Shown: positions 2,019-43,673 of the stretch, piece by piece
Layout: every line of letters begins with the position of its first letter
How positions within the stretch are numbered: position 1 is the first letter of the stretch
Translations under genes and position numbers: made by a program
DNA from: Candidatus Gastranaerophilales bacterium
Lineage (GTDB): Bacteria > Cyanobacteriota > Vampirovibrionia > Gastranaerophilales > Gastranaerophilaceae
Reading direction: 5' to 3'
NCBI GenBank assembly: GCA_944325625.1
Contig: CALVAP010000016.1
Coordinates: forward strand, 1 to 43,673
DNA length: 43,673 bases
The notes under the pieces: model-generated
Seen by the model: the letters and a program-made list of their open reading frames with translations, nothing else
Databases searched by the model: none
Told to the model about the DNA's origin: nothing

Positions 2019-2953
2019 ACTCGAATTTCAAAACATATTCAGAAATTAAAAAACTTGTTGAACCCGAGATACTCAAAATGTCATCGGTAATCTCGGAACG
2101 AATTTATAAAACAAACATACCAGAGCAAGAGTTTTTAAACGAACTGAATGAATATTTTAAAAGCGGCTCAAAGCAGCTTCGCTCTTGTCTGATATTTTTA
2201 TTTGCAAAAGCAATAAACGCAGAAGTGAATGAAAAAACAGTAAAATTAGCAGCCGCGGTAGAGATAATACACAATGCAACACTAATCCATGATGATATCA
2301 TAGATGAAAGCGATATTCGACGTGGAAAAACCGCACTTCACAAGAAATACGGCAACAAACTCTCAATAATCGCAGGAGACTATCTTCTTTCACTTGCAAT
2401 AAATTTGCTGAGTGAAACAGGAAACTCAAAGATTATAGAAAACTTTGCAAATTGTTTAAATGCACTTTGTCTGGGAGAAATAGAACAATATTTTTCACAA
2501 AAAACAACTCCTTCACTGGAAGAATATATAATCAAATCTGAAGCAAAAACAGCATCTCTTTTCAAAGCATCCCTCAAATCTCTTGCTGATTTGCAAGAGA
2601 AAAAACATTCTAAATCCTTGGAAACTTTTGCAAAATACTTTGGTATAGCCTTTCAGATTAGCGATGATTTGAAAAACATTTCCGCTCTCCCCCAAAAAGA
2701 AAAACAAAAACCGAGATTTAATGACATAAAAGCAGGAATATACACCGCACCTGTGATATATGCTTTTGGCGAAAACAAGCTTTTGGACAAATTTTCAACA
2801 GATGAAATTATAAAAAAATCCGGTACAAAACCTATCCAAGAAAAAACGAAGCAATTAATAAAAACCCAAGTAAATGAGGCAAAACGACAAATCACAAACA
2901 TCCCTGATAGCGCTTACAAACAAGCAATACTAAAGTTATGTGACCTTATTTAA
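2015..2953 (+). CDS. Polyprenyl (long-chain isoprenoid) diphosphate synthase
   Basis: This is a trans-prenyltransferase of 312 residues that condenses isopentenyl diphosphate onto an allylic primer, probably for the side chain of a quinone. The first Asp-rich motif is intact (HDDIIDE, D93/D94/D97), preceded by the KQLR box near residue 53 and followed by RRG at 102-104. The second motif reads DDLKN at 217-221, so its last Asp is replaced by Asn. The C-terminal GIYTAPVIYA box resembles the GxxTAPxI form of solanesyl-type synthases. The start is TTG at 2015, overlapping the upstream stop in ATTGA, with AGGA 11 nt before it; an in-frame ATG lies at 2078 but would remove N-terminal helix residues. 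Chain length and end product cannot be told from sequence. Confidence 0.85.
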   Translation: MNSNFKTYSEIKKLVEPEILKMSSVISERIYKTNIPEQEFLNELNEYFKSGSKQLRSCLIFLFAKAINAEVNEKTVKLAAAVEIIHNATLIHDDIIDESDIRRGKTALHKKYGNKLSIIAGDYLLSLAINLLSETGNSKIIENFANCLNALCLGEIEQYFSQKTTPSLEEYIIKSEAKTASLFKASLKSLADLQEKKHSKSLETFAKYFGIAFQISDDLKNISALPQKEKQKPRFNDIKAGIYTAPVIYAFGENKLLDKFSTDEIIKKSGTKPIQEKTKQLIKTQVNEAKRQITNIPDSAYKQAILKLCDLI

Positions 2954-3030
2954 TAAGAAAAAACAAATTAGGCAATTTTTTTGTATGAAATGTTTTTATA
3001 TAAATATAGGGGAAAACGGGGAAATATTTA

Positions 3031-3405
3031 ATGACGATAGGATTTAATTTTAATACCAGTTTACTAACGCCAAATACCAACATCAATTGGGGAATAGACC
3101 AAGCATTTAACCAAAACTTCGGCAATAATCTGGCACTAATAAGCATGCTCAGCATGCCAACGATAGGAGGAGGAGATTCCATACCATATTGTATGGACTA
3201 CCCGCTATTACCCGGCTTTGGATTAGGGGGGCTTGGTTTTGGGTATGGATTTAATTTAGGCTACCCAAGCGTATTTATGAATGGTAATAACGCAGGAATG
3301 ATACAAAGTTGGCAAAATCTCGGTAACACACTTGGGAACTCACTAAGCGCACCATTTTATAAGCTAAGTGATGCAGTAGGCAAATTTTTCTGCTCATCCG
3401 GTTGA
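3031..3405 (+). CDS. Small Gly/Asn-rich protein of unknown function
   Basis: The 124-residue product is rich in Gly, Asn, Phe and Leu, with a glycine-aromatic stretch (GFGLGGLGFGYGFNLGY) around residues 62-78 and a C-terminus ending KFFCSSG. It has no signal peptide by eye and no recognised domain. GGGGAAA sits about 8 nt before the ATG, so translation is likely real. It stands alone between the polyprenyl synthase and the serine dehydratase genes, and the sdaAB promoter lies just after it. The composition suggests a surface or self-assembling protein, but that is only a guess. Confidence 0.6.
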   Translation: MTIGFNFNTSLLTPNTNINWGIDQAFNQNFGNNLALISMLSMPTIGGGDSIPYCMDYPLLPGFGLGGLGFGYGFNLGYPSVFMNGNNAGMIQSWQNLGNTLGNSLSAPFYKLSDAVGKFFCSSG

Positions 3406-5711: not shown

Positions 5712-5743
5712 GAAAAAATCACCACCAATGTGGTGATTTTTTC
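5712..5743 (-). terminator. Intrinsic terminator of the small-peptide operon
   Basis: A perfect 14-bp inverted repeat (5712-5725 with 5730-5743, loop CAAT) has an A-rich left arm and a T-rich right arm, so it could work in both directions. It closes the minus-strand unit that encodes the two tiny peptides and separates it from the MBL-fold gene. Confidence 0.85.
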
Positions 5744-5763
5744 ATCAAGTTCTCATTACTCAC

Positions 5764-5910
5764 TTATCCACAAAACGCCGACACTGTAGTAGTAACAGTG
5801 CTAGCCCCGACTACACCGGAAGAAGAAACTTGAACCGCAAAGACAAATGCTACAAGCATAATCACAAACAGTCCAATAAATGTAAAATTTAAAACTCTGG
5901 CTTCATTCAT
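5764..5910 (-). CDS. 48-aa single-pass membrane peptide ending in Cys-Gly
   Basis: The reading frame gives MNEARVLNFTF, a hydrophobic segment (residues 11-27, IGLFVIMLVAFVFAVQV), then a Ser/Thr/Val-rich tail that ends SAFCG. GGAG stands 9 nt before the ATG. It is the second gene of a two-peptide operon, 82 nt after the 54-aa peptide. The membrane segment followed by a small polar tail with a penultimate Cys could be a signal-anchor peptide, a processed secreted peptide, or the substrate of a modifying enzyme. No family is recognised. The frame is short, but promoter, ribosome binding site and terminator around it support expression. Confidence 0.6.
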   Translation of the reverse strand: MNEARVLNFTFIGLFVIMLVAFVFAVQVSSSGVVGASTVTTTVSAFCG

Positions 5911-5992
5911 ATGAACACACTCCATTTTTCATCAAAAGATGATAACTACACACACAGGATTTCAACAGAAACTTCTAAGAAGGCAATCCTTA

Positions 5993-6157
5993 CTAAGCAA
6001 CAGCAGAAAATCCGCCGCCACCACCACATGAAGAAGAAGCCACAGAACCAGCTGTTTCAGCTCCGCTAAAAGCTACCGAACCTGCAGTTTCAGCACTTGC
6101 TGGAGCAGAAGGTTGACTTACCATTGCAAAATTTACCGGTGCTACTGAAAAATTCAT
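5993..6157 (-). CDS. 54-aa Ala/Ser/Gly-rich peptide with internal repeat and CGGGGG tail
   Basis: The peptide begins MNFSVAPVNFAMVSQ, then repeats AETAGSVA twice (residues 23-30 and 33-40), and ends SSSCGGGGGFSAVA with one cysteine before a run of five glycines. The ATG at 6157 is preceded by AAGGAG at 8 nt; the frame extends upstream but without a better start. It is the first gene after a strong promoter. Such small, low-complexity, single-Cys, glycine-tailed peptides are often precursors of modified peptides or cell-surface components, but no maturation enzyme lies next to it, so function is unknown. It is divergent from the purD-like gene. Confidence 0.65.
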   Translation of the reverse strand: MNFSVAPVNFAMVSQPSAPASAETAGSVAFSGAETAGSVASSSCGGGGGFSAVA

Positions 6158-6209
6158 AATAAACTCCTTAATATTTTGATACCTCGTGATATATTGTTTT
6201 ATATCCACA

Positions 6210-6238
6210 TTTATATAAAACCATCTAAAAAGTTCCAA
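6210..6238 (-). promoter_or_regulatory. Sigma-70-type promoter of the two-peptide operon
   Basis: On the minus strand TTGGAA (6233-6238) and TATAAA (6210-6215) are exactly 17 nt apart. Transcription would begin near 6203 and give a leader of about 46 nt before the ATG at 6157. It is divergent from the purD-like promoter about 50 bp away. Confidence 0.65.
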
Positions 6239-6285
6239 TTTCAGATATATATTATTTTGTTACATTAGTTAACATAATGATATAG

Positions 6286-18961: not shown

Positions 18962-20077
18962 CTAAGGAAAAGGCTTTTCAGAAAGGCTTTTTTCTCTAAC
19001 CTTTAACTCACAGCACATCTGGCAAGCATTAAAAACACCCGAACACTGCAAGTTTTTTCTAAAACACCTAAACTTTGGAAGGTTATAAACTTCTTTAAGC
19101 TTCATATCTCTGACATTGCCAATTTTTAAAGAAAGACACGGATAAACATCACCCTGCGGATTTATCATCATATTGGAAAATGGATACTTGCATGGATAAT
19201 ATATTTCTTTAATATCCCTTTTCGGATTATTCAAATAAAAATCCTTAATTTTTTGGAGTTCATTATTACCTTCAAACTTAGGCGCATAGCGAATTTTGAC
19301 ATTAGACTTTTTAGAAAGAGATTGAAGTTCTTTATAAACCTCTTCAAAATGTTCCATGTCAAAGTATGCTTCAATTGGATAACGTTTTTCCCAAAATTCT
19401 TCTCCAAAATTTTCTCTTAAGTGCGAATTTTGTTTAAGGTTATTATTTCTCAAAAAAGAAACCGAGAGAAAATCAAACCCCATATCATCACAGAGTTTAT
19501 AAAGCTTTGGCAAATCATCGAGATTGTTTTCTAGAACAATAGTCTTTATATCAACCATCGGTTTACTTTTTCTGAGGGATTTTTTCTTAGCTTGAAGCTT
19601 CTCCAGATTATAAATAATTTTGTCCCAAATACCCTCGCACCCGCGGTTAATATCATGATTTTTACCATAACCGTCCAATGATACCGACAAAAGCATCATG
19701 TTAGATTTAATAAACGCATCAATTATACTATTGTCAATTAAAATTCCGTTGGTAACAACATTTAGTTTTCCAAAAGTTTTCTTTGAAACAGAAAAAAGAA
19801 TTTCCTTAAAGTCTTTTCTTACCAGAGGCTCGCCGCCAACAAGAGTAACAAAAGAATAAAAAGGAATTTGAGAGATAACCTTTTTCCATTCTTCAAGAGT
19901 TAACTCATTTTTTTTTCGTTCATTACCCACATAGCAATACGGACATGCCAAATTACACCGATAAGTCAGCTCAAAAAAATACCTCAACGGAATCAAAGCT
20001 TTGCCTGATTTTGAATGATAAGACAAATCTGCATAGGCGTCTCTTAGTATGTCAAACAACTTTGAATAATTAATCAT
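18962..20077 (-). CDS. Radical SAM protein with SPASM-like C-terminal cluster domain
   Basis: The 371-residue protein has the radical SAM motif CNLACPYC (C41, C45, C48) and a glycine-rich GGEPLVRKDF. Its C-terminus carries PC...INPQGDVYPCLSLKIGNV and then CSGVFNACQMCCELK, the cysteine pattern of a SPASM/twitch auxiliary cluster domain. Such enzymes modify peptides, proteins or other substrates; the substrate is not evident and no short peptide gene adjoins it. It lies divergent to the sugar kinase/CsaB pair. No Shine-Dalgarno sequence is present and a -10 element lies 6 nt before the ATG. An anaerobic lifestyle fits. Confidence 0.8.
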   Translation of the reverse strand: MINYSKLFDILRDAYADLSYHSKSGKALIPLRYFFELTYRCNLACPYCYVGNERKKNELTLEEWKKVISQIPFYSFVTLVGGEPLVRKDFKEILFSVSKKTFGKLNVVTNGILIDNSIIDAFIKSNMMLLSVSLDGYGKNHDINRGCEGIWDKIIYNLEKLQAKKKSLRKSKPMVDIKTIVLENNLDDLPKLYKLCDDMGFDFLSVSFLRNNNLKQNSHLRENFGEEFWEKRYPIEAYFDMEHFEEVYKELQSLSKKSNVKIRYAPKFEGNNELQKIKDFYLNNPKRDIKEIYYPCKYPFSNMMINPQGDVYPCLSLKIGNVRDMKLKEVYNLPKFRCFRKNLQCSGVFNACQMCCELKVREKSLSEKPFP

Positions 20078-35794: not shown

Positions 35795-36004
35795 CTTCCT
35801 CCTCCCAATCCATATTATACAACTATTTTACAATAAAAAGAGTTTTTGAAAAACATCGCAACATAACTTAAACGGAGAAATTATTACAAAATATTAAGCA
35901 AAATATATATAAAAGAGCAATTTTTATATACGACAAAACTTTATATATATACGAGAGATATAAATTATACCACTAAAATATTTAATTAGAGAAAGAGAGA
36001 AACT

Positions 36005-36397
36005 ATGTCACTAGCTGTTGCACAAGGAACAAATCTATTCATAGTTATGCAAAAAGCAAATCTTGAATACAGATTAATGCAGATAACAAGCCAACTTCAA
36101 CAACTTGCCTATGCTGTATCTGACGAATCCTCAAGAATGCTCAATGAATACCAACGCTCCGTTGCAATTTCAGAGGGGACGGATGAATCCGCTGTGGCGG
36201 CAGATGTAATGAGCAGTACCGAATTTATGGCGATGTACAACAATATGACCTTGCAATATCAAGCAAAAGAAAAAATGCTAAACACAGAAAAACAACAGTT
36301 GGAAACAGAACAAAAATCTTACGATACAATGCAAGAGGGTATTGAAAAAATGATAGAATCCGGAATAAAAGAAAGTTTCTCATATTTTGACAACTAA
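36005..36397 (+). CDS. 130-aa helical protein of unknown function
   Basis: The protein is almost all predicted helix: VMQKANLEYRLMQITSQLQQLAYAV at the start and a coiled-coil-like stretch YQAKEKMLNTEKQQLETEQ near residues 80-100. It has no signal peptide and ends ESFSYFDN. GAGAAAGAGAG lies before the ATG. It precedes the 60-aa gene and the giant flagellin on the same strand. The shape recalls small helical filament, chaperone or secretion-associated proteins, but no family (FliS included) is recognised. Confidence 0.7.
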   Translation: MSLAVAQGTNLFIVMQKANLEYRLMQITSQLQQLAYAVSDESSRMLNEYQRSVAISEGTDESAVAADVMSSTEFMAMYNNMTLQYQAKEKMLNTEKQQLETEQKSYDTMQEGIEKMIESGIKESFSYFDN

Positions 36398-36976: not shown

Positions 36977-39900
36977 GTGATATCGATTAATAACAGCTTA
37001 CTTAATCTAAAGCTACAAAACACAATATTCAATAATTTTCAGTCCTTCACAACCTCATTACAAAGGTTGATTACAGGGCTGAGAATAAATTCGCCATCAG
37101 ATGACCCTGCAGGTTTTTATATTGCGAGTAACTTTACAACACAAATTAGGGGATTAGAGGTTGTCAACCAGAACATACAGTCTGCAATGAGCATACTTGG
37201 GATTGCCGATGAGTCAATAGAAGAGATTAACGACATCATGGGCGAAATTCGCGACCTTGTAGCCAAAAGCACAAGCGATTACCTTACACCGGAAGAGAGA
37301 GAAGCAAATCAGAAAAAGATTAACGAACTTTTTGCTCAAGCAAAACAAATTAAGGAAAACGCCGAATACAAAGGCAACAAGCTTTTGAGCAATACCATTA
37401 AACTTGACAAAAACGAAACATACTACAACGACAAAACATCAAGCGGAAAATCGGTAGCAACACTTGGGGGCATATCCAGAACCTATACCCCGGTAACAAC
37501 AGCAGCAGGTCAAGTTTTAAACAAATTAGCTGATGTCACGCCAACCACATCAGCTTCCCCTTCTTCTGATACTCCCTCATCTGATTCTGAAGCGCAACCG
37601 GATGAAGTATCGTCATTAGCAGATACTACGCCAACAACACAAAGTACAGAAACACCAGAACCGCTCATGTCTGCATCTACTATGATGTTTTCCGCAGCTC
37701 CTGCAATGTATTCTACGCTTGCTGCGCCGACATCATCTCAAGACCCATCAGATGCCAGCATAACGATGATGTCTTTAGATGAGCCTGACGCCTCAACTCA
37801 ATCACCTAATTCAGGAATTATGATGATGTCATTGGATGCAGGAGATGCCGCAGCTGCTCCGGCGAACGCTCCGGCAAGCACTATGTCGTCTGACGTAGAA
37901 AACTGGGGTACCTCAGGTGGTACAGTTTCGTTCAGTAAAGGAACGTCCAAAACCGTACAAATTGGAGACAAGGTTTATACTATCGAAAACCTTAAAACCA
38001 GCATAACTTCAAACTCCCTCAAGTGGTCATACGACAGTGGTACAGGCGAAATAACCTTCAGCGGTTCGTCATTTTGCATAACCGCAGCCGACGGGCAAGA
38101 TGATAAGATGAAATTAAGCATTGGCTCATATAACCAAATCCACACTGGTGATGGTGCAGATTCGGTTAATCTTTCATCATCTTCATCTCGAAACAACACC
38201 GTAAACACTGGCGAGGGCAACGATTCGGTTTCAGTTTCCGGAGATTACAACACCATTGACACAGGCGAGGGCAACGATTCGGTTTCGGTTTCTGGTTATA
38301 GCGACAGCAACACGATTGACGGCGGCACAGGCTCAAATACTTACGTAAACAATTCTACATCTACCACACCTAACACTATAACCAATTTTGAAAATGCCGG
38401 TACTTTATCCTTCTCTCAAAATGAAACTAAAACTATTCAAATTGACGGTAAAACCTATACTGTTCAAAACCTTAAAAATAATTCATCTGCTAATTCACTA
38501 ACTTGGACTTATGATGATTCAACAGGCGAGATTACTTTCTGGGGTTCGTCGTTCGGTATTATCGCAGCTGATGGTCAAGATGATAAGATTAAGTTACAAA
38601 GTGGCTCATATAACCAAATCCACACTGGTGATGGTGCTGACTCGGTTAATATTGCATATTCTTACTCTTATTATAACACCGTAAACACTGGCGAGGGCAA
38701 CGATTCGGTTTCGGTTTCTGGCAACTCCAACACCATTGATACAGGAATTGGCGATGATTATATCAGTATTGCTGGGTCAGTTAACGCTGTCACTTCCGGT
38801 GCTGGAAATGACACTGTATTTGTTTCAAATGCAGACAACTATATTTGCACAGGTGAAGATGATGACTCTATTGCCATATTAAGTAGCGATAATCAAAACA
38901 ATAATATAATAGAAACAGGACTTGGCATAAATGATAAAATAATTTATCAATCGTCTTACTCATCGAACATACCTATCAGAACAATAATACAATCTTACGA
39001 ATCAAATGAAACTAAAACTATAGCAATCGGAGATAAAACCTACACCATTCAAAACAATGGAACTAAAGGCAATGAATTAACGTATTTTGTTTCTAATAAT
39101 GGTTTAATTAGTTTTACTGGGGACAATTTTACAATAACCGCAGCAAATAATCAGAGTGATAATATTATAATTAACGGCGATAATAATAATGTTGATACCG
39201 CAGATAACAATGACACTATAGTTATTAACGGGAACAGCAACAACGTAAATGGAGGAAGTGGCGTTGATACATACACAGACATAGGTTCGAATAATACATT
39301 GTCAAACGTTGAGACTCAATTAACAGAAGTAAATTGGGGTTCTACAGAAGGAACAGTATCTTTCAACGCCAACGAAACTAAAGTTGTTAAAATTTCAGAT
39401 AAAACATACATTATTACGAATGTAGGCTATCGTAGTAATTCATTATATTGGTCCTATGATAGCAATACAGGAAATATTACTTTCGATGGGCCTTTATTTA
39501 CAATAACTGCAGGCAATGGTCAAGACGATAAATTGAATGTTGGAGGATCTAGTTCTTTTATATTCACAGGTGATGGTGACGATTTAGTTAATAACGACTT
39601 TGAATCATATGTAATTCAAATAAATACTGGCAAAGGTAATGATACCGTAAACACCAGAGGAGATGATTATCACTCTTGGTCTGTAATATATACTGGCGAT
39701 GGTAATGATGTAATAAATAATTCTACAGACTTATCAGATTACATCCTTGCTGGCGGTAGTGGATATAATCAGTATACAGGCGACATTACAAACAACGCAG
39801 TTATCAACTTTGCTCCTCCTGCTGAAGATTGGGGTACTGCAGGTGGTACGGTGTCATTTGCTCAAGATGAATCCAAAACCGTTCAAATCGGCGATAAAAT

Positions 39901-42900
39901 CTATACTATCGAAAACCTCAAAAACAACTCTACCGCTAACTCTCTCACTTGGTCATATAATAATAGCACTGGTGAAATAACCTTTAGCGGTTCATCATTT
40001 GGCATCACCGCAGCAGACGGGCAAGATGATAAGATTAAGTTAGGCAGTGGTTCCTACAACACCATTGACACCGGTGATGGTGCCGACTCGGTTAATCTTT
40101 CATCATCTTCATCTCGATACAACACCGTAAACACTGGCGAAGGCAACGATTCTGTTTCTGTTTCTGGACACGACAACACCATTGATACCGGTGAGGGCAA
40201 CGATTCGGTTTCGGTTTCGGGTTCCGACCACACCATTGACGGCGGTACAGGCTCAAATACTTACGTGAATAATTCTACATCCTCTAACACTATAACCAAC
40301 TTTGAAAATGCAGGTACTTTATCATTCTCTCGAAATGAAACTAAAACTATTCAAATTGACGGTAAAACTTATACTGTTCAAAACCTTAAAAATCGTTCAT
40401 CTGCTAATTCTCTTACTTGGACTTATAATGATTCAACAGGCGAGATTACTTTCTGGGGGTCGTCATTTGGCATAACTGCAGCTGACGGTCAAGATGATAA
40501 GATTAAATTAAGCAGTGGTGATGCCAACCAAATCAACACCTGCGATGGCGCAGATTCGGTTAATCTTTCATCATTTTCATCTCGATACAACACCGTAAAC
40601 ACGGGCGGGGGCAACGATTCTGTTTCTGTTTCCGGAGATTACAACACCATTGATACCGGTGATGGCGCAGATTCGGTTAATCTTTCATCATCTTCATCAT
40701 CTTTATCTCAATACAACACCGTAAACACTGGCGAAGGCAACGATTCTGTTTCAGCTTCCGGATCTTCCAACACAATTGACGGCGGTAGTGGTACTAATAC
40801 TTATGTGAATAATTCTACCTCCTCCTCTTCAAACACTATAACCAACTTTGAAAATGCTGGTACTTTATCTTTTACTCAAAATGAAACTAAAACTATTCAA
40901 ATTGACGGTAAAACTTATACTGTTCAAAACCTTAAAAATAGTTCATCTGCTAATTCTCTCACTTGGACTTATGATAATACAACAGGTGAAATTACTTTCT
41001 GGGGTTCGTCATTTGGCATCACCGCAGCAGACGGGCAAGATGATAAGATTAAACTTGATGGCTACTACAATCAAATATACACTGGCGATGGTAACGACTC
41101 TATATCTGCTTGGAAAGCATATCATAGCACTATAGACGGGGGGGCTGGCAATGATACCATAAGCAATTTAGACATTTCATATGGCAACACTACTCAAAAT
41201 ATTGAGGTTTGGGATATCACTGATTCTTATGGGTCTCTGTCTTTCAACCAAAATGAATCCAAAACGGTCCAAATCGGCGATAAGATTTATACTATCACCA
41301 ACAATGGTAATGCGAACAACTCTCTTAGCTTTGCATATTATAGTGATTACGATGAAATCACATTTGATGGTTCGTCATTTGGCATTACTGCTGCTGACGG
41401 GCAAGATGATAAAATCAACATAGGAGGAAGTTATAATTCTGTTTATACGGGCGATGGCGATGACTATGTATGCAGCTCCGCAGGTAGCGGTCATAATACT
41501 ATAGACACTGGCATTGGTGATGATTCTGTAAAAATCCAAGGGATGTCAGCGCACAATACGGTATACACTGGTGATGGCGATGATTATGTTTATACCTCTA
41601 CTGGGACTTCTAACAACACCATTGACGGTGGTAGCGGGCTCAACACATATGAAGATAATGGCACAGGTAATAGCTTTATAAACTTTGACCCGCCGGAAAA
41701 CTGGGGTACGTCTGGTGGTTCGGTTTCATTTGGTAAGGATGAGTCCAAGACTGTTCAAATCGGCGATAAGATTTATACTATCGAAAACCTCGGTAATTCT
41801 TCTAACGGGCTCTCTTGGTCATACGACAACTCAACAGGTGAAATAACCTTTAGCGGTTCGTCATTCGGTATTACCGCAGCCAACGGCCAAGATGATAAGA
41901 TTAAGTTAATCGATGGCTACTACAATCAAATATACACTGGCGATGGTGATGACTCAATAAATGGATGGAACGCATATAATAGCACTATTGACACAGGCGA
42001 GGGCAACGATTCGGTTTCGGTTTCTGGTTATAGCAACAGCAACACGATTGACGGCGGCACAGGCTCAAATACTTACGTAAACAATTCCACATCTACCATA
42101 CCTAACACCATAACCAATTTTGAAAATGCAGGCACTTTTTCTTTCTCTCAAAATGAAACTAAAACTATTCAAATTGACGGTAAGACTTATACTGTTCAAA
42201 ATCTTAGCGATAGTTCATCTGCTAATTCACTCACTTGGACTTATGATAATACAACAGGTGAAATTACTTTCCGGGGTTCGTCATTTGGCATCACCGCAGC
42301 AGACGGGCAAGATGATAAGATTAAGTTAATCGATGGCTCCTACAACCAAATCAACACCGGTGATGGAGATGATTTGGTTAATATTGTTTTTGGTTCTCAT
42401 GATAACACCGTAAACACTGGCGAGGGCAACGATTCCGTTGATGTTTCTGGACACGACAACACCATTGATACTGGCGAGGGCAATGATTACGTTTATACCT
42501 CTACTGGGGCTTCTAACAACACTATTGACGGTGGTAGCGGGCTCAACACATATGAAGATAATGGCACAGGTAATAGCTTTATAAACTTTGAAACACCTGT
42601 TGAGAACTGGGGCACCTCTGGTGGTACGGTTTCATTCACTCAAGACGAATCCAAAACCGTCCAAATCGGCGATAAAATCTATACTATCGAAAACCTTACA
42701 ACCAGCTCAACTTCAAACTCCCTCACCTGGTCATATGATAGTAATACCGGTGAAATAACCTTTGAAGGAGATTATAGTTTTAAGATTACTGCTGCAACTG
42801 GTCAAGACGATAAGATCAATTGGGGAATCCATAGTGGAGAACTCTATACCGGCGACGGTAACGACACCATTAACGTTAATAATTCTAACAATATCATAAA

Positions 42901-43673
42901 CACAGGTGATGGCGCAGATTCGGTTAATATTACAGATTATGCATCTAGCAACACCATTGACGGCGGTAGCGGATACAACCAATATACCGATAACGGCTCT
43001 AATAATACCTTTATAAACTTTGAAACACCTATTGAAAACTGGGGTACTGCAGGTGGTACGGTGTCATTTGGTCAAGATGAGTCCAAAACCGTCCAAATCG
43101 GCGATAAAATCTATACTATCGAAAACCTTAAAACCACGACAGGTAACAACTCACTCACCTGGTCATATGATAGCAACACAGGTGAAATAACCTTTAGTGG
43201 TTCGTCATTTGGCATAACCGCAGCCGACGGGCAAGATGATAAGATTAAACTTGATGGCTACGACAACCAAATCAACACCGGTGATGGCGCAGATTCGGTT
43301 AATATTACAGATCATGCATCTAGCAACACCGTAAACACTGGCGAGGGCAACGATTCGGTTGAGGTTTCTGGACCTGAGAACACCGTAAACACTGGCGAGG
43401 GCAACGATTCGGTTTTTCTTGTCGGATATAGAAATACTGTCAACACAGGCGAGGGCAACGATTCGGTTTCGGTTGCGGGCGGATCCAACACCGTTGACAC
43501 TGGCGAGGGCAACGATTCGGTTTCAGTTTCCGGAGGTTACAACACCATTGATACAGGCGATGGAGATGACTTTATTGTTATTTCATCTGGTGGTAACATA
43601 GTTTATTCAGGAAACGGCAATGATACAATTAAAATTACTGGGGAATATTATCACGGTTCTCATATAAATACAG
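36977..43673 (+). CDS. Giant flagellin with RTX-like beta-roll array (3' end outside window)
   Basis: The frame starts at GTG 36977 (TAA at 36956-36958 closes it upstream; no ATG fits) and runs 2232 codons without a stop to the window end. Residues 1-140 are a flagellin N-terminal D0/D1 domain: ISINNSLLNLKLQN, then LQRLITGLRINSPSDDPAGF (28-47), IRGLEVVNQNIQSAMSILG and EIRDLVAKS (90-98). Residues about 165-305 are a Ser/Thr/Pro/Met linker. From residue 310 come at least twelve modules of 111-202 residues, each a conserved block (WGTSGGTVSF, KTVQIGDKIYTIENL, TGEITFSGSSFGITAADGQD) followed by RTX-type repeats such as TGEGNDSVSVSGDYNTID. About 35 xGxGxD sites are visible. The C-terminal D0/D1 half, needed for a true flagellin, is not in the window. 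AAGG is 10 nt before the GTG. Confidence 0.88.
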   Translation, partial: MISINNSLLNLKLQNTIFNNFQSFTTSLQRLITGLRINSPSDDPAGFYIASNFTTQIRGLEVVNQNIQSAMSILGIADESIEEINDIMGEIRDLVAKSTSDYLTPEEREANQKKINELFAQAKQIKENAEYKGNKLLSNTIKLDKNETYYNDKTSSGKSVATLGGISRTYTPVTTAAGQVLNKLADVTPTTSASPSSDTPSSDSEAQPDEVSSLADTTPTTQSTETPEPLMSASTMMFSAAPAMYSTLAAPTSSQDPSDASITMMSLDEPDASTQSPNSGIMMMSLDAGDAAAAPANAPASTMSSDVENWGTSGGTVSFSKGTSKTVQIGDKVYTIENLKTSITSNSLKWSYDSGTGEITFSGSSFCITAADGQDDKMKLSIGSYNQIHTGDGADSVNLSSSSSRNNTVNTGEGNDSVSVSGDYNTIDTGEGNDSVSVSGYSDSNTIDGGTGSNTYVNNSTSTTPNTITNFENAGTLSFSQNETKTIQIDGKTYTVQNLKNNSSANSLTWTYDDSTGEITFWGSSFGIIAADGQDDKIKLQSGSYNQIHTGDGADSVNIAYSYSYYNTVNTGEGNDSVSVSGNSNTIDTGIGDDYISIAGSVNAVTSGAGNDTVFVSNADNYICTGEDDDSIAILSSDNQNNNIIETGLGINDKIIYQSSYSSNIPIRTIIQSYESNETKTIAIGDKTYTIQNNGTKGNELTYFVSNNGLISFTGDNFTITAANNQSDNIIINGDNNNVDTADNNDTIVINGNSNNVNGGSGVDTYTDIGSNNTLSNVETQLTEVNWGSTEGTVSFNANETKVVKISDKTYIITNVGYRSNSLYWSYDSNTGNITFDGPLFTITAGNGQDDKLNVGGSSSFIFTGDGDDLVNNDFESYVIQINTGKGNDTVNTRGDDYHSWSVIYTGDGNDVINNSTDLSDYILAGGSGYNQYTGDITNNAVINFAPPAEDWGTAGGTVSFAQDESKTVQIGDKIYTIENLKNNSTANSLTWSYNNSTGEITFSGSSFGITAADGQDDKIKLGSGSYNTIDTGDGADSVNLSSSSSRYNTVNTGEGNDSVSVSGHDNTIDTGEGNDSVSVSGSDHTIDGGTGSNTYVNNSTSSNTITNFENAGTLSFSRNETKTIQIDGKTYTVQNLKNRSSANSLTWTYNDSTGEITFWGSSFGITAADGQDDKIKLSSGDANQINTCDGADSVNLSSFSSRYNTVNTGGGNDSVSVSGDYNTIDTGDGADSVNLSSSSSSLSQYNTVNTGEGNDSVSASGSSNTIDGGSGTNTYVNNSTSSSSNTITNFENAGTLSFTQNETKTIQIDGKTYTVQNLKNSSSANSLTWTYDNTTGEITFWGSSFGITAADGQDDKIKLDGYYNQIYTGDGNDSISAWKAYHSTIDGGAGNDTISNLDISYGNTTQNIEVWDITDSYGSLSFNQNESKTVQIGDKIYTITNNGNANNSLSFAYYSDYDEITFDGSSFGITAADGQDDKINIGGSYNSVYTGDGDDYVCSSAGSGHNTIDTGIGDDSVKIQGMSAHNTVYTGDGDDYVYTSTGTSNNTIDGGSGLNTYEDNGTGNSFINFDPPENWGTSGGSVSFGKDESKTVQIGDKIYTIENLGNSSNGLSWSYDNSTGEITFSGSSFGITAANGQDDKIKLIDGYYNQIYTGDGDDSINGWNAYNSTIDTGEGNDSVSVSGYSNSNTIDGGTGSNTYVNNSTSTIPNTITNFENAGTFSFSQNETKTIQIDGKTYTVQNLSDSSSANSLTWTYDNTTGEITFRGSSFGITAADGQDDKIKLIDGSYNQINTGDGDDLVNIVFGSHDNTVNTGEGNDSVDVSGHDNTIDTGEGNDYVYTSTGASNNTIDGGSGLNTYEDNGTGNSFINFETPVENWGTSGGTVSFTQDESKTVQIGDKIYTIENLTTSSTSNSLTWSYDSNTGEITFEGDYSFKITAATGQDDKINWGIHSGELYTGDGNDTINVNNSNNIINTGDGADSVNITDYASSNTIDGGSGYNQYTDNGSNNTFINFETPIENWGTAGGTVSFGQDESKTVQIGDKIYTIENLKTTTGNNSLTWSYDSNTGEITFSGSSFGITAADGQDDKIKLDGYDNQINTGDGADSVNITDHASSNTVNTGEGNDSVEVSGPENTVNTGEGNDSVFLVGYRNTVNTGEGNDSVSVAGGSNTVDTGEGNDSVSVSGGYNTIDTGDGDDFIVISSGGNIVYSGNGNDTIKITGEYYHGSHINT
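37895..43673 (+). repeat. Twelve tandem protein-coding modules in the giant flagellin
   Basis: Modules begin near 37895, 38390, 38996, 39329, 39821, 40304, 40850, 41207, 41696, 42122, 42599 and 43031. Two block types occur: A (ENWGT.GGTVSF...KTVQIGDKIYTIENL) and B (ENAGTLSFSQNETKTIQIDGK). A followed by B appears at modules 1-2, 5-6 and 9-10, and a second B follows at module 7. Most modules end with DGG(T/S)GxNxY, where the Asp of the RTX motif is replaced by Asn, which looks like a capping turn. Near-identical DNA stretches, such as GGCGAGGGCAACGATTCGGT, recur many times, so the region is prone to recombination and misassembly. Confidence 0.85.

What the first reader, a model, noticed from the sequence alone, without database searches (positions are those of the whole stretch)
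5712..6238. Self-contained operon of two tiny peptides with Cys/Gly-rich ends
A near-consensus promoter (TTGGAA-17-TATAAA), two short genes with good ribosome binding sites, and a perfect 14-bp terminator enclose peptides of 54 and 48 residues. One has a duplicated AETAGSVA and ends with CGGGGGFSAVA; the other is a membrane peptide ending FCG. Both end near a single cysteine followed by glycine. This looks like an expressed, dedicated system: a modified-peptide precursor pair, a secreted signal, or a surface component with membrane partner. No maturase is adjacent, although a SPASM radical SAM gene lies 13 kb away.
Basis: partly seen in the sequence, partly recalled or inferred. Interest (0 to 1): 0.6.

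Follow-up and report, generated by a model that had tools for sequence, protein, structure and literature searches.

The report
Tiny-peptide operon in secretion-like regulon
Two tiny neighbouring genes of a gut bacterium related to cyanobacteria make a real, conserved peptide pair of an undescribed family, sitting behind a DNA element that also precedes many other small proteins without export signals, which suggests, without proof, that they are cargo of a flagellum-like secretion machine.

Summary
Peptide A (54 aa) and peptide B (48 aa, one membrane segment) are under purifying selection: window versus a same-genus genome, dN/dS 0.05 for A and 0.22 for B. A belongs to an undescribed family built from E-[TS]-A-G-[ST]-[LIVM]-A units, found in at least 22 of 41 genera of one family of gut Gastranaerophilales. 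In all 45 B loci examined (10 genera) a small gene lies directly upstream; in 42 it carries clear A repeat units. The surroundings otherwise differ between genera and no maturase travels with the pair. Cysteine is not conserved, so the modified-peptide reading is not supported.

The operon is not self-contained. A rigid 71-77 bp element precedes 63 of 64 A genes. It recurs up to 22 times per genome, in 190 of 191 genomes of the family and practically nowhere else in the class. Other genes behind it encode leaderless proteins with polar N-termini; some sites precede an apparent small RNA. All genera also keep type III export genes even without flagellin. I propose that A (perhaps B) belongs to a type III export-type cargo regulon. 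Family, pair and element are shown; export and function are inferred.

The parts
6200..6276 (-). Conserved promoter element: GTTAA..TGTAAC (box 1), TGAAATT (box 2), GTTTTATATAAATGTG (box 3, -10-like)
   Evidence: Rigid spacing upstream of 63 of 64 A genes; model R1 E=3.3e-12, best site of the genome; 60.5 bits by weight matrix
6164..6169 (-). Ribosome binding site of A (AAGGAG)
   Evidence: sequence
5993..6157 (-). Peptide A, 54 aa, two AETAGSVA units, CGGGGGFSAVA tail, stop codon included
   Evidence: homologues; dN/dS 0.05
5920..5923 (-). Ribosome binding site of B (GGAG)
   Evidence: sequence
5764..5910 (-). Peptide B, 48 aa, single membrane span, ends SAFCG, stop codon included
   Evidence: profile search; adjacency; dN/dS 0.22
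5712..5743 (-). Intrinsic terminator, 14-pair stem, 4-base loop, T tail
2938..3014 (+). Possible core half of the element (GCAATT + TTTATATA) upstream of the gene at 3031-3405; box 1 missing; weak
   Evidence: -10.6 bits, best + strand site of the window; E=1.09
3031..3405 (+). Possible regulon member: leaderless 124-aa protein MTIGFNFN...FFCSSG, no Pfam match
35883..35959 (+). Possible core half of the element upstream of the gene at 36005-36397; weak
   Evidence: -14.8 bits
36005..36397 (+). Possible regulon member: leaderless 130-aa helical protein MSLAVAQGTNLF..., resembling by eye the ends of the co-regulated MGLAASQ family

Best explanation
The locus is a two-gene operon of a small-protein family of gut Gastranaerophilales. 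A is a short, low-complexity, leaderless peptide carrying one to seven copies of E-[TS]-A-G-[ST]-[LIVM]-A and a Gly/Ser(/Cys)-rich tail. B is a 46-50 aa single-span membrane peptide encoded just downstream. The pair sits behind a rigid three-box element (an upstream GTTAA..TGTAAC site plus a core of G[AC]AATT and TTTATATA) that recurs up to 22 times per genome before genes whose products are likewise leaderless with polar, weakly charged N-termini. I infer that this is the cargo regulon of the second, flagellum-like type III export apparatus that the family keeps with or without flagella: A would be exported, B would sit in the membrane as its partner or be delivered with it, and the repeat would act outside as a multivalent linear motif or surface ligand. 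Shown: genes, selection, linkage, element, its gene set, presence of export genes. Inferred: transcription from the element, export route, role of B, function of the repeat.
For: Coding selection. A repeat family. A-type gene directly upstream of B in 42 of 45 B loci. Element before 63 of 64 A genes, 190 of 191 family genomes, 38 of 38 family genomes but only single weak hits in 4 of 79 others in the class. Element genes are leaderless: 0 of 28 non-A and 0 of 51 A N-termini look like signal or membrane segments against 16 of 101 controls, with more small polar residues. One co-regulated family has conserved helical ends and a variable middle, the layout of flagellin-like axial proteins. Export genes: FHIPEP in 190 and FliP in 189 of 191 genomes, flagellin in only 77; second FliE/FliF/FHIPEP/ATPase and FliP/Q/R sets in this genome and, apart from the ATPase, in a flagellin-less relative. 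A-B occurs in flagellin-less genomes (g26).
Against: The element was not found upstream of the export operons themselves, so the link to export is by product type and taxonomic range only. Other families of the class have a similar second FHIPEP but no element. No secretion data. B has no type III hallmark and could simply be an inner-membrane protein. The fold matches of the co-regulated proteins are inconclusive.
Confidence: 0.48

Rival explanations
1. A is a ribosomally made precursor peptide modified by trans-acting enzymes (for example azole formation in the Gly/Ser/Cys tail, the kind of tail known from microcin B17), with B helping export or immunity.
For: Gly/Ser/Cys-rich tails, very rich in long forms such as ...SCGGFSGGASAGGSCG...; short leaderless precursor; repeats as in multi-core precursors.
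Against: 24 of 66 A peptides have no Cys at all; the most conserved part is the ETAGSxA unit, not the tail; no maturase or other gene shared next to A across genera; the SPASM gene of the window has no demonstrated link.
Confidence: 0.12
2. A and B are non-exported: a cytoplasmic, disordered peptide A tethered by or regulating a membrane peptide B (a small regulatory or stress pair), and the element is simply a growth-phase or stress promoter class of this family.
For: No export shown; B is a plain single-span peptide; the element lies before diverse genes and apparent small RNAs and not before the export operons.
Against: The co-regulated products share leaderless, polar N-termini and include repeat-rich and axial-like proteins that are hard to place in the cytoplasm; many A genes have no B at all.
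Confidence: 0.28
3. B is a peptide pheromone precursor (membrane or signal segment plus a released C-terminal tail) and A a companion.
For: B resembles a short signal segment followed by a 15-20 residue tail; sequences differ between genera.
Against: B tails are alike across several genera (SAFNA, SAFDA); no receptor gene accompanies B; many A genes lack B.
Confidence: 0.07

Closest known systems
Type III / flagellar export substrates (flagellin, FliD, FliE, non-flagellar effectors)
   Same: Leaderless; polar, weakly charged N-termini; made from dedicated promoters; several co-regulated products are helical or repeat-rich; export genes present in the genome.
   Different: No sequence family match; A has no helical ends and a repeated ETAGSxA unit; no demonstrated chaperone; promoter not shared with the export operons.
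Microcin B17-like and other RiPP precursors
   Same: Short peptide, Gly/Ser/Cys-rich tail in many members, multi-copy motif.
   Different: Cys not conserved, repeat unit conserved instead of a core, no maturase, protease or transporter gene shared beside A across genera.
Two-peptide bacteriocins and small membrane toxin pairs
   Same: Two tiny peptides in one operon, one hydrophobic.
   Different: No double-glycine leader on either, no immunity or transporter gene shared beside them, A is polar and repeat-built.

Membership tests
Type III (flagellum-like) export cargo | No Sec signal or membrane segment at the N-terminus; polar N-terminus | tested here: met
   A: 0 of 51 distinct A N-termini signal-like, more small polar and fewer charged residues than controls; met for A, not for B, which has a membrane span
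Type III (flagellum-like) export cargo | A type III export apparatus in the same genome | tested here: met
   FHIPEP in 190/191 and FliP in 189/191 genomes; second set in this genome
Type III (flagellum-like) export cargo | Shared regulation with the export apparatus | tested here: inconclusive
   No element upstream of the export operons scanned; many cargo genes elsewhere are regulated apart from the apparatus, so this does not exclude it
Type III (flagellum-like) export cargo | Secretion that depends on the export gate | not testable with these tools
   needs an experiment
RiPP precursor | Conserved modifiable core residues (Cys) | tested here: not met
   38 of 66 with Cys in the last 12 residues, 42 with any Cys
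RiPP precursor | Maturase, protease or transporter beside the precursor | tested here: not met
   No gene other than B shared beside A across genera in loci of about 6-18 kb
RiPP precursor | Trans-acting maturase elsewhere in the genome | not tested
Two-peptide bacteriocin | Double-glycine leaders on both peptides | tested here: not met
   sequences of A and B and their relatives

The most novel reading that the evidence does not exclude
Gut Gastranaerophilales, motile or not, run a flagellum-derived type III secretion system with its own promoter-defined cargo regulon, and A (with membrane partner B) is a repeat-bearing cargo acting at the surface or on other cells; the 'incomplete flagellar gene sets' of non-motile members would be this secretion system rather than decaying flagella.
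Probability: 0.38. Interest if true: 0.85.

Novelty: new variant of a known kind. Interest (0 to 1): 0.62.

Why it matters
Earlier genome papers read here describe the incomplete flagellar gene sets of these gut bacteria as flagellum loss (PMC3787301, PMC4040986), and two searches of the open-access library found no study of type III secretion in them (subscription papers are not held). A rigid, family-specific promoter element that marks a set of leaderless small proteins, together with export genes kept in every genus, gives a concrete and testable list of candidate exported proteins for a largely uncultured gut lineage. The A-B pair is among its best-conserved targets and is a small-protein family absent from Pfam and NCBIfam.

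Tried and rejected
Pfam and NCBIfam for A and B: nothing above a cut-off. Rfam on the window: nothing. Named-genome scan with the window's A: no relative; with a relative's A: 19 records, 17 titled Candidatus Gastranaerophilales and two 'uncultured bacterium'. B's alignment was too variable for that scan. Structure of the 58-aa co-regulated family: low-confidence two-helix model, only weak unrelated matches. Structure of the 269-aa co-regulated protein: low confidence; flagellins appear at Z about 9 but below unrelated coiled coils, so inconclusive; PDB sequence searches gave only chance-level matches. A lone FHIPEP C-domain gene lies beside an element-bearing gene in this genome, but not in G073, so I do not use it as evidence.

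Full report
What is there. The window is one whole contig of a 1.7 Mb genome in 17 contigs. Homologues of A sit in genomes deposited as Candidatus Gastranaerophilales (17 of 19 records, the other two 'uncultured bacterium').

Are they genes? Yes. Against the same-genus genome G016, where the locus has the same neighbours, A shows 22 synonymous and 5 non-synonymous differences (dN/dS 0.05) and B has dN/dS 0.22.

A family without a name. A has no Pfam or NCBIfam match. Searches in 191 genomes of the same taxonomic family, plus reading downstream of the promoter element, gave A-type proteins of about 50-150 aa in at least 22 of 41 genera (my count). They share E-[TS]-A-G-[ST]-[LIVM]-A units: 200 units in 66 proteins. 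Positions 1, 4 and 7 were fixed by the search pattern; position 2 is T or S in 189, position 3 is A in 164, position 5 is S or T in 166, position 6 is L, I, V or M in 196. Short forms have one to three units, some long forms up to seven. The last residue is A in 47, C in 14, G in 4 and S in 1 of 66.

B is a true partner. A profile of B finds 44 genomes with E below 1e-7, in 10 genera; the next match (5e-4) also lies behind an A gene. In all 45 loci examined a small gene lies directly upstream; in 42 it carries clear A units, in two (genus g37) a degenerate one, in one (g3) none. B starts M-[NTSK]-[ED]-x-[RK], usually with N-[YF] two residues later, spans the membrane once and often ends SAFNA or similar. 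Most long A forms have no B and a terminator directly after the stop; genera g26 and g36 have A of about 100-130 aa with B.

No maturase. Apart from B, no neighbour of A is shared across genera: purD and a metallo-beta-lactamase-fold gene in g1, a grpE-like gene and its neighbours in g6, ferredoxin and oxidoreductase genes in g36. The SPASM protein at 18962-20077 shows no link.

The promoter is the surprise. Upstream of 63 of 64 A genes lies GTTAA-n4-TGTAAC-n15-TGAAAT-n16-TTTTTATATA at near-fixed spacing, 43 bases from TGTAAC to the T run in most. A sequence-only model (R1) finds seven strong sites in this genome, up to 22 per genome and in 190 of 191 family genomes. In a class-wide sample it finds all 38 family members but only single weak hits in 4 of 79 other genomes.

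What else it precedes. Across genomes the element lies before leaderless genes: a 54-60 aa family with KVTVNLD; a 249-269 aa family with conserved helical ends and a variable middle (MGLAASQARLLLLTARKSDLEYRAQ); repeat-rich proteins; coiled coils; 69-aa peptides ending LDFMA or LDYFA. None of 28 non-A and 51 A N-termini looks like a signal or membrane segment, against 16 of 101 control genes, and their first 20 residues are richer in small polar residues (members of one family are not independent samples). Several sites have no ORF but a CU-rich sequence ending in a terminator, apparently a small RNA. In the window two further leaderless genes (3031-3405, 36005-36397) carry only what looks like the core half of the element (weak).

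Link to type III export (inference). This genome has two complete FHIPEP genes. One is flagellar-type; the other falls below both the FlhA and the SctV cut-offs and lies with FliE, FliF and ATPase homologues. It has two FliP genes, the second with FliQ and FliR homologues. FHIPEP occurs in 190 and FliP in 189 of 191 genomes, flagellin in 77. A and B occur in flagellin-less genomes (g26), so they are not flagellar parts. The published view is that incomplete flagellar sets reflect loss (PMC3787301, PMC4040986). The element was not found before the export operons scanned and related families have a similar second FHIPEP without the element, so the link rests on the nature of the products and the presence of the genes, not on shared regulation.

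Verdict. Shown: a conserved two-gene operon, an undescribed repeat-peptide family, a family-specific promoter-like element and its gene set. Inferred, at about even odds: these are cargo of the second type III-like exporter. Not supported: a modified-peptide pair. Unknown: what the ETAGSxA repeat binds and what B does.

Noticed in passing
G000:C6:11690-19900 (L207), G000:C2 84.4-86.8 kb (L265); G073 (L266, L267): A second, flagellum-like type III export gene set (FliE, FliF, FHIPEP, FliP/Q/R homologues, and an ATPase in this genome), kept in essentially all 41 genera of the family even without flagellin; its FHIPEP falls below both the FlhA and the SctV cut-offs.
   Followed up: partly
L135, L143, L193, L194, L199, L221, L248: Element sites without an ORF, followed within about 100 nt by a CU-rich stretch (CTTCCTAACCTTCCCTTCC in most) and a terminator: an apparent co-regulated small RNA that could pair with Shine-Dalgarno sequences.
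   Followed up: partly
L210:8191-9657 (G000:C13:63190-64656); L268:7224-8702 in G073: A stand-alone protein carrying only the C-terminal, cytoplasmic part of FHIPEP (about 490-505 aa), found in nearly all sampled genomes of this family and hardly elsewhere in the class.
   Followed up: partly
window 36977-43672 (+, runs off the contig): A very long flagellin-like protein: flagellin N-terminal domain followed by more than 1,500 residues of repeats with G-x-D-x motifs resembling calcium-binding repeats.
   Followed up: no
L134/L139 (G000:C13:135.7-136.1 kb), L224 in G016: Two element sites about 0.3 kb apart, each before a short leaderless gene (69 aa ending LDYFA; 133 aa ending INFLA), with C-terminal ends resembling those of A.
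   Followed up: no
window 18962-20077 (-): A SPASM radical SAM protein upstream of which, on the other strand, a sugar-kinase-like and a pyruvyl-transferase-like gene begin; no link to A found.
   Followed up: partly
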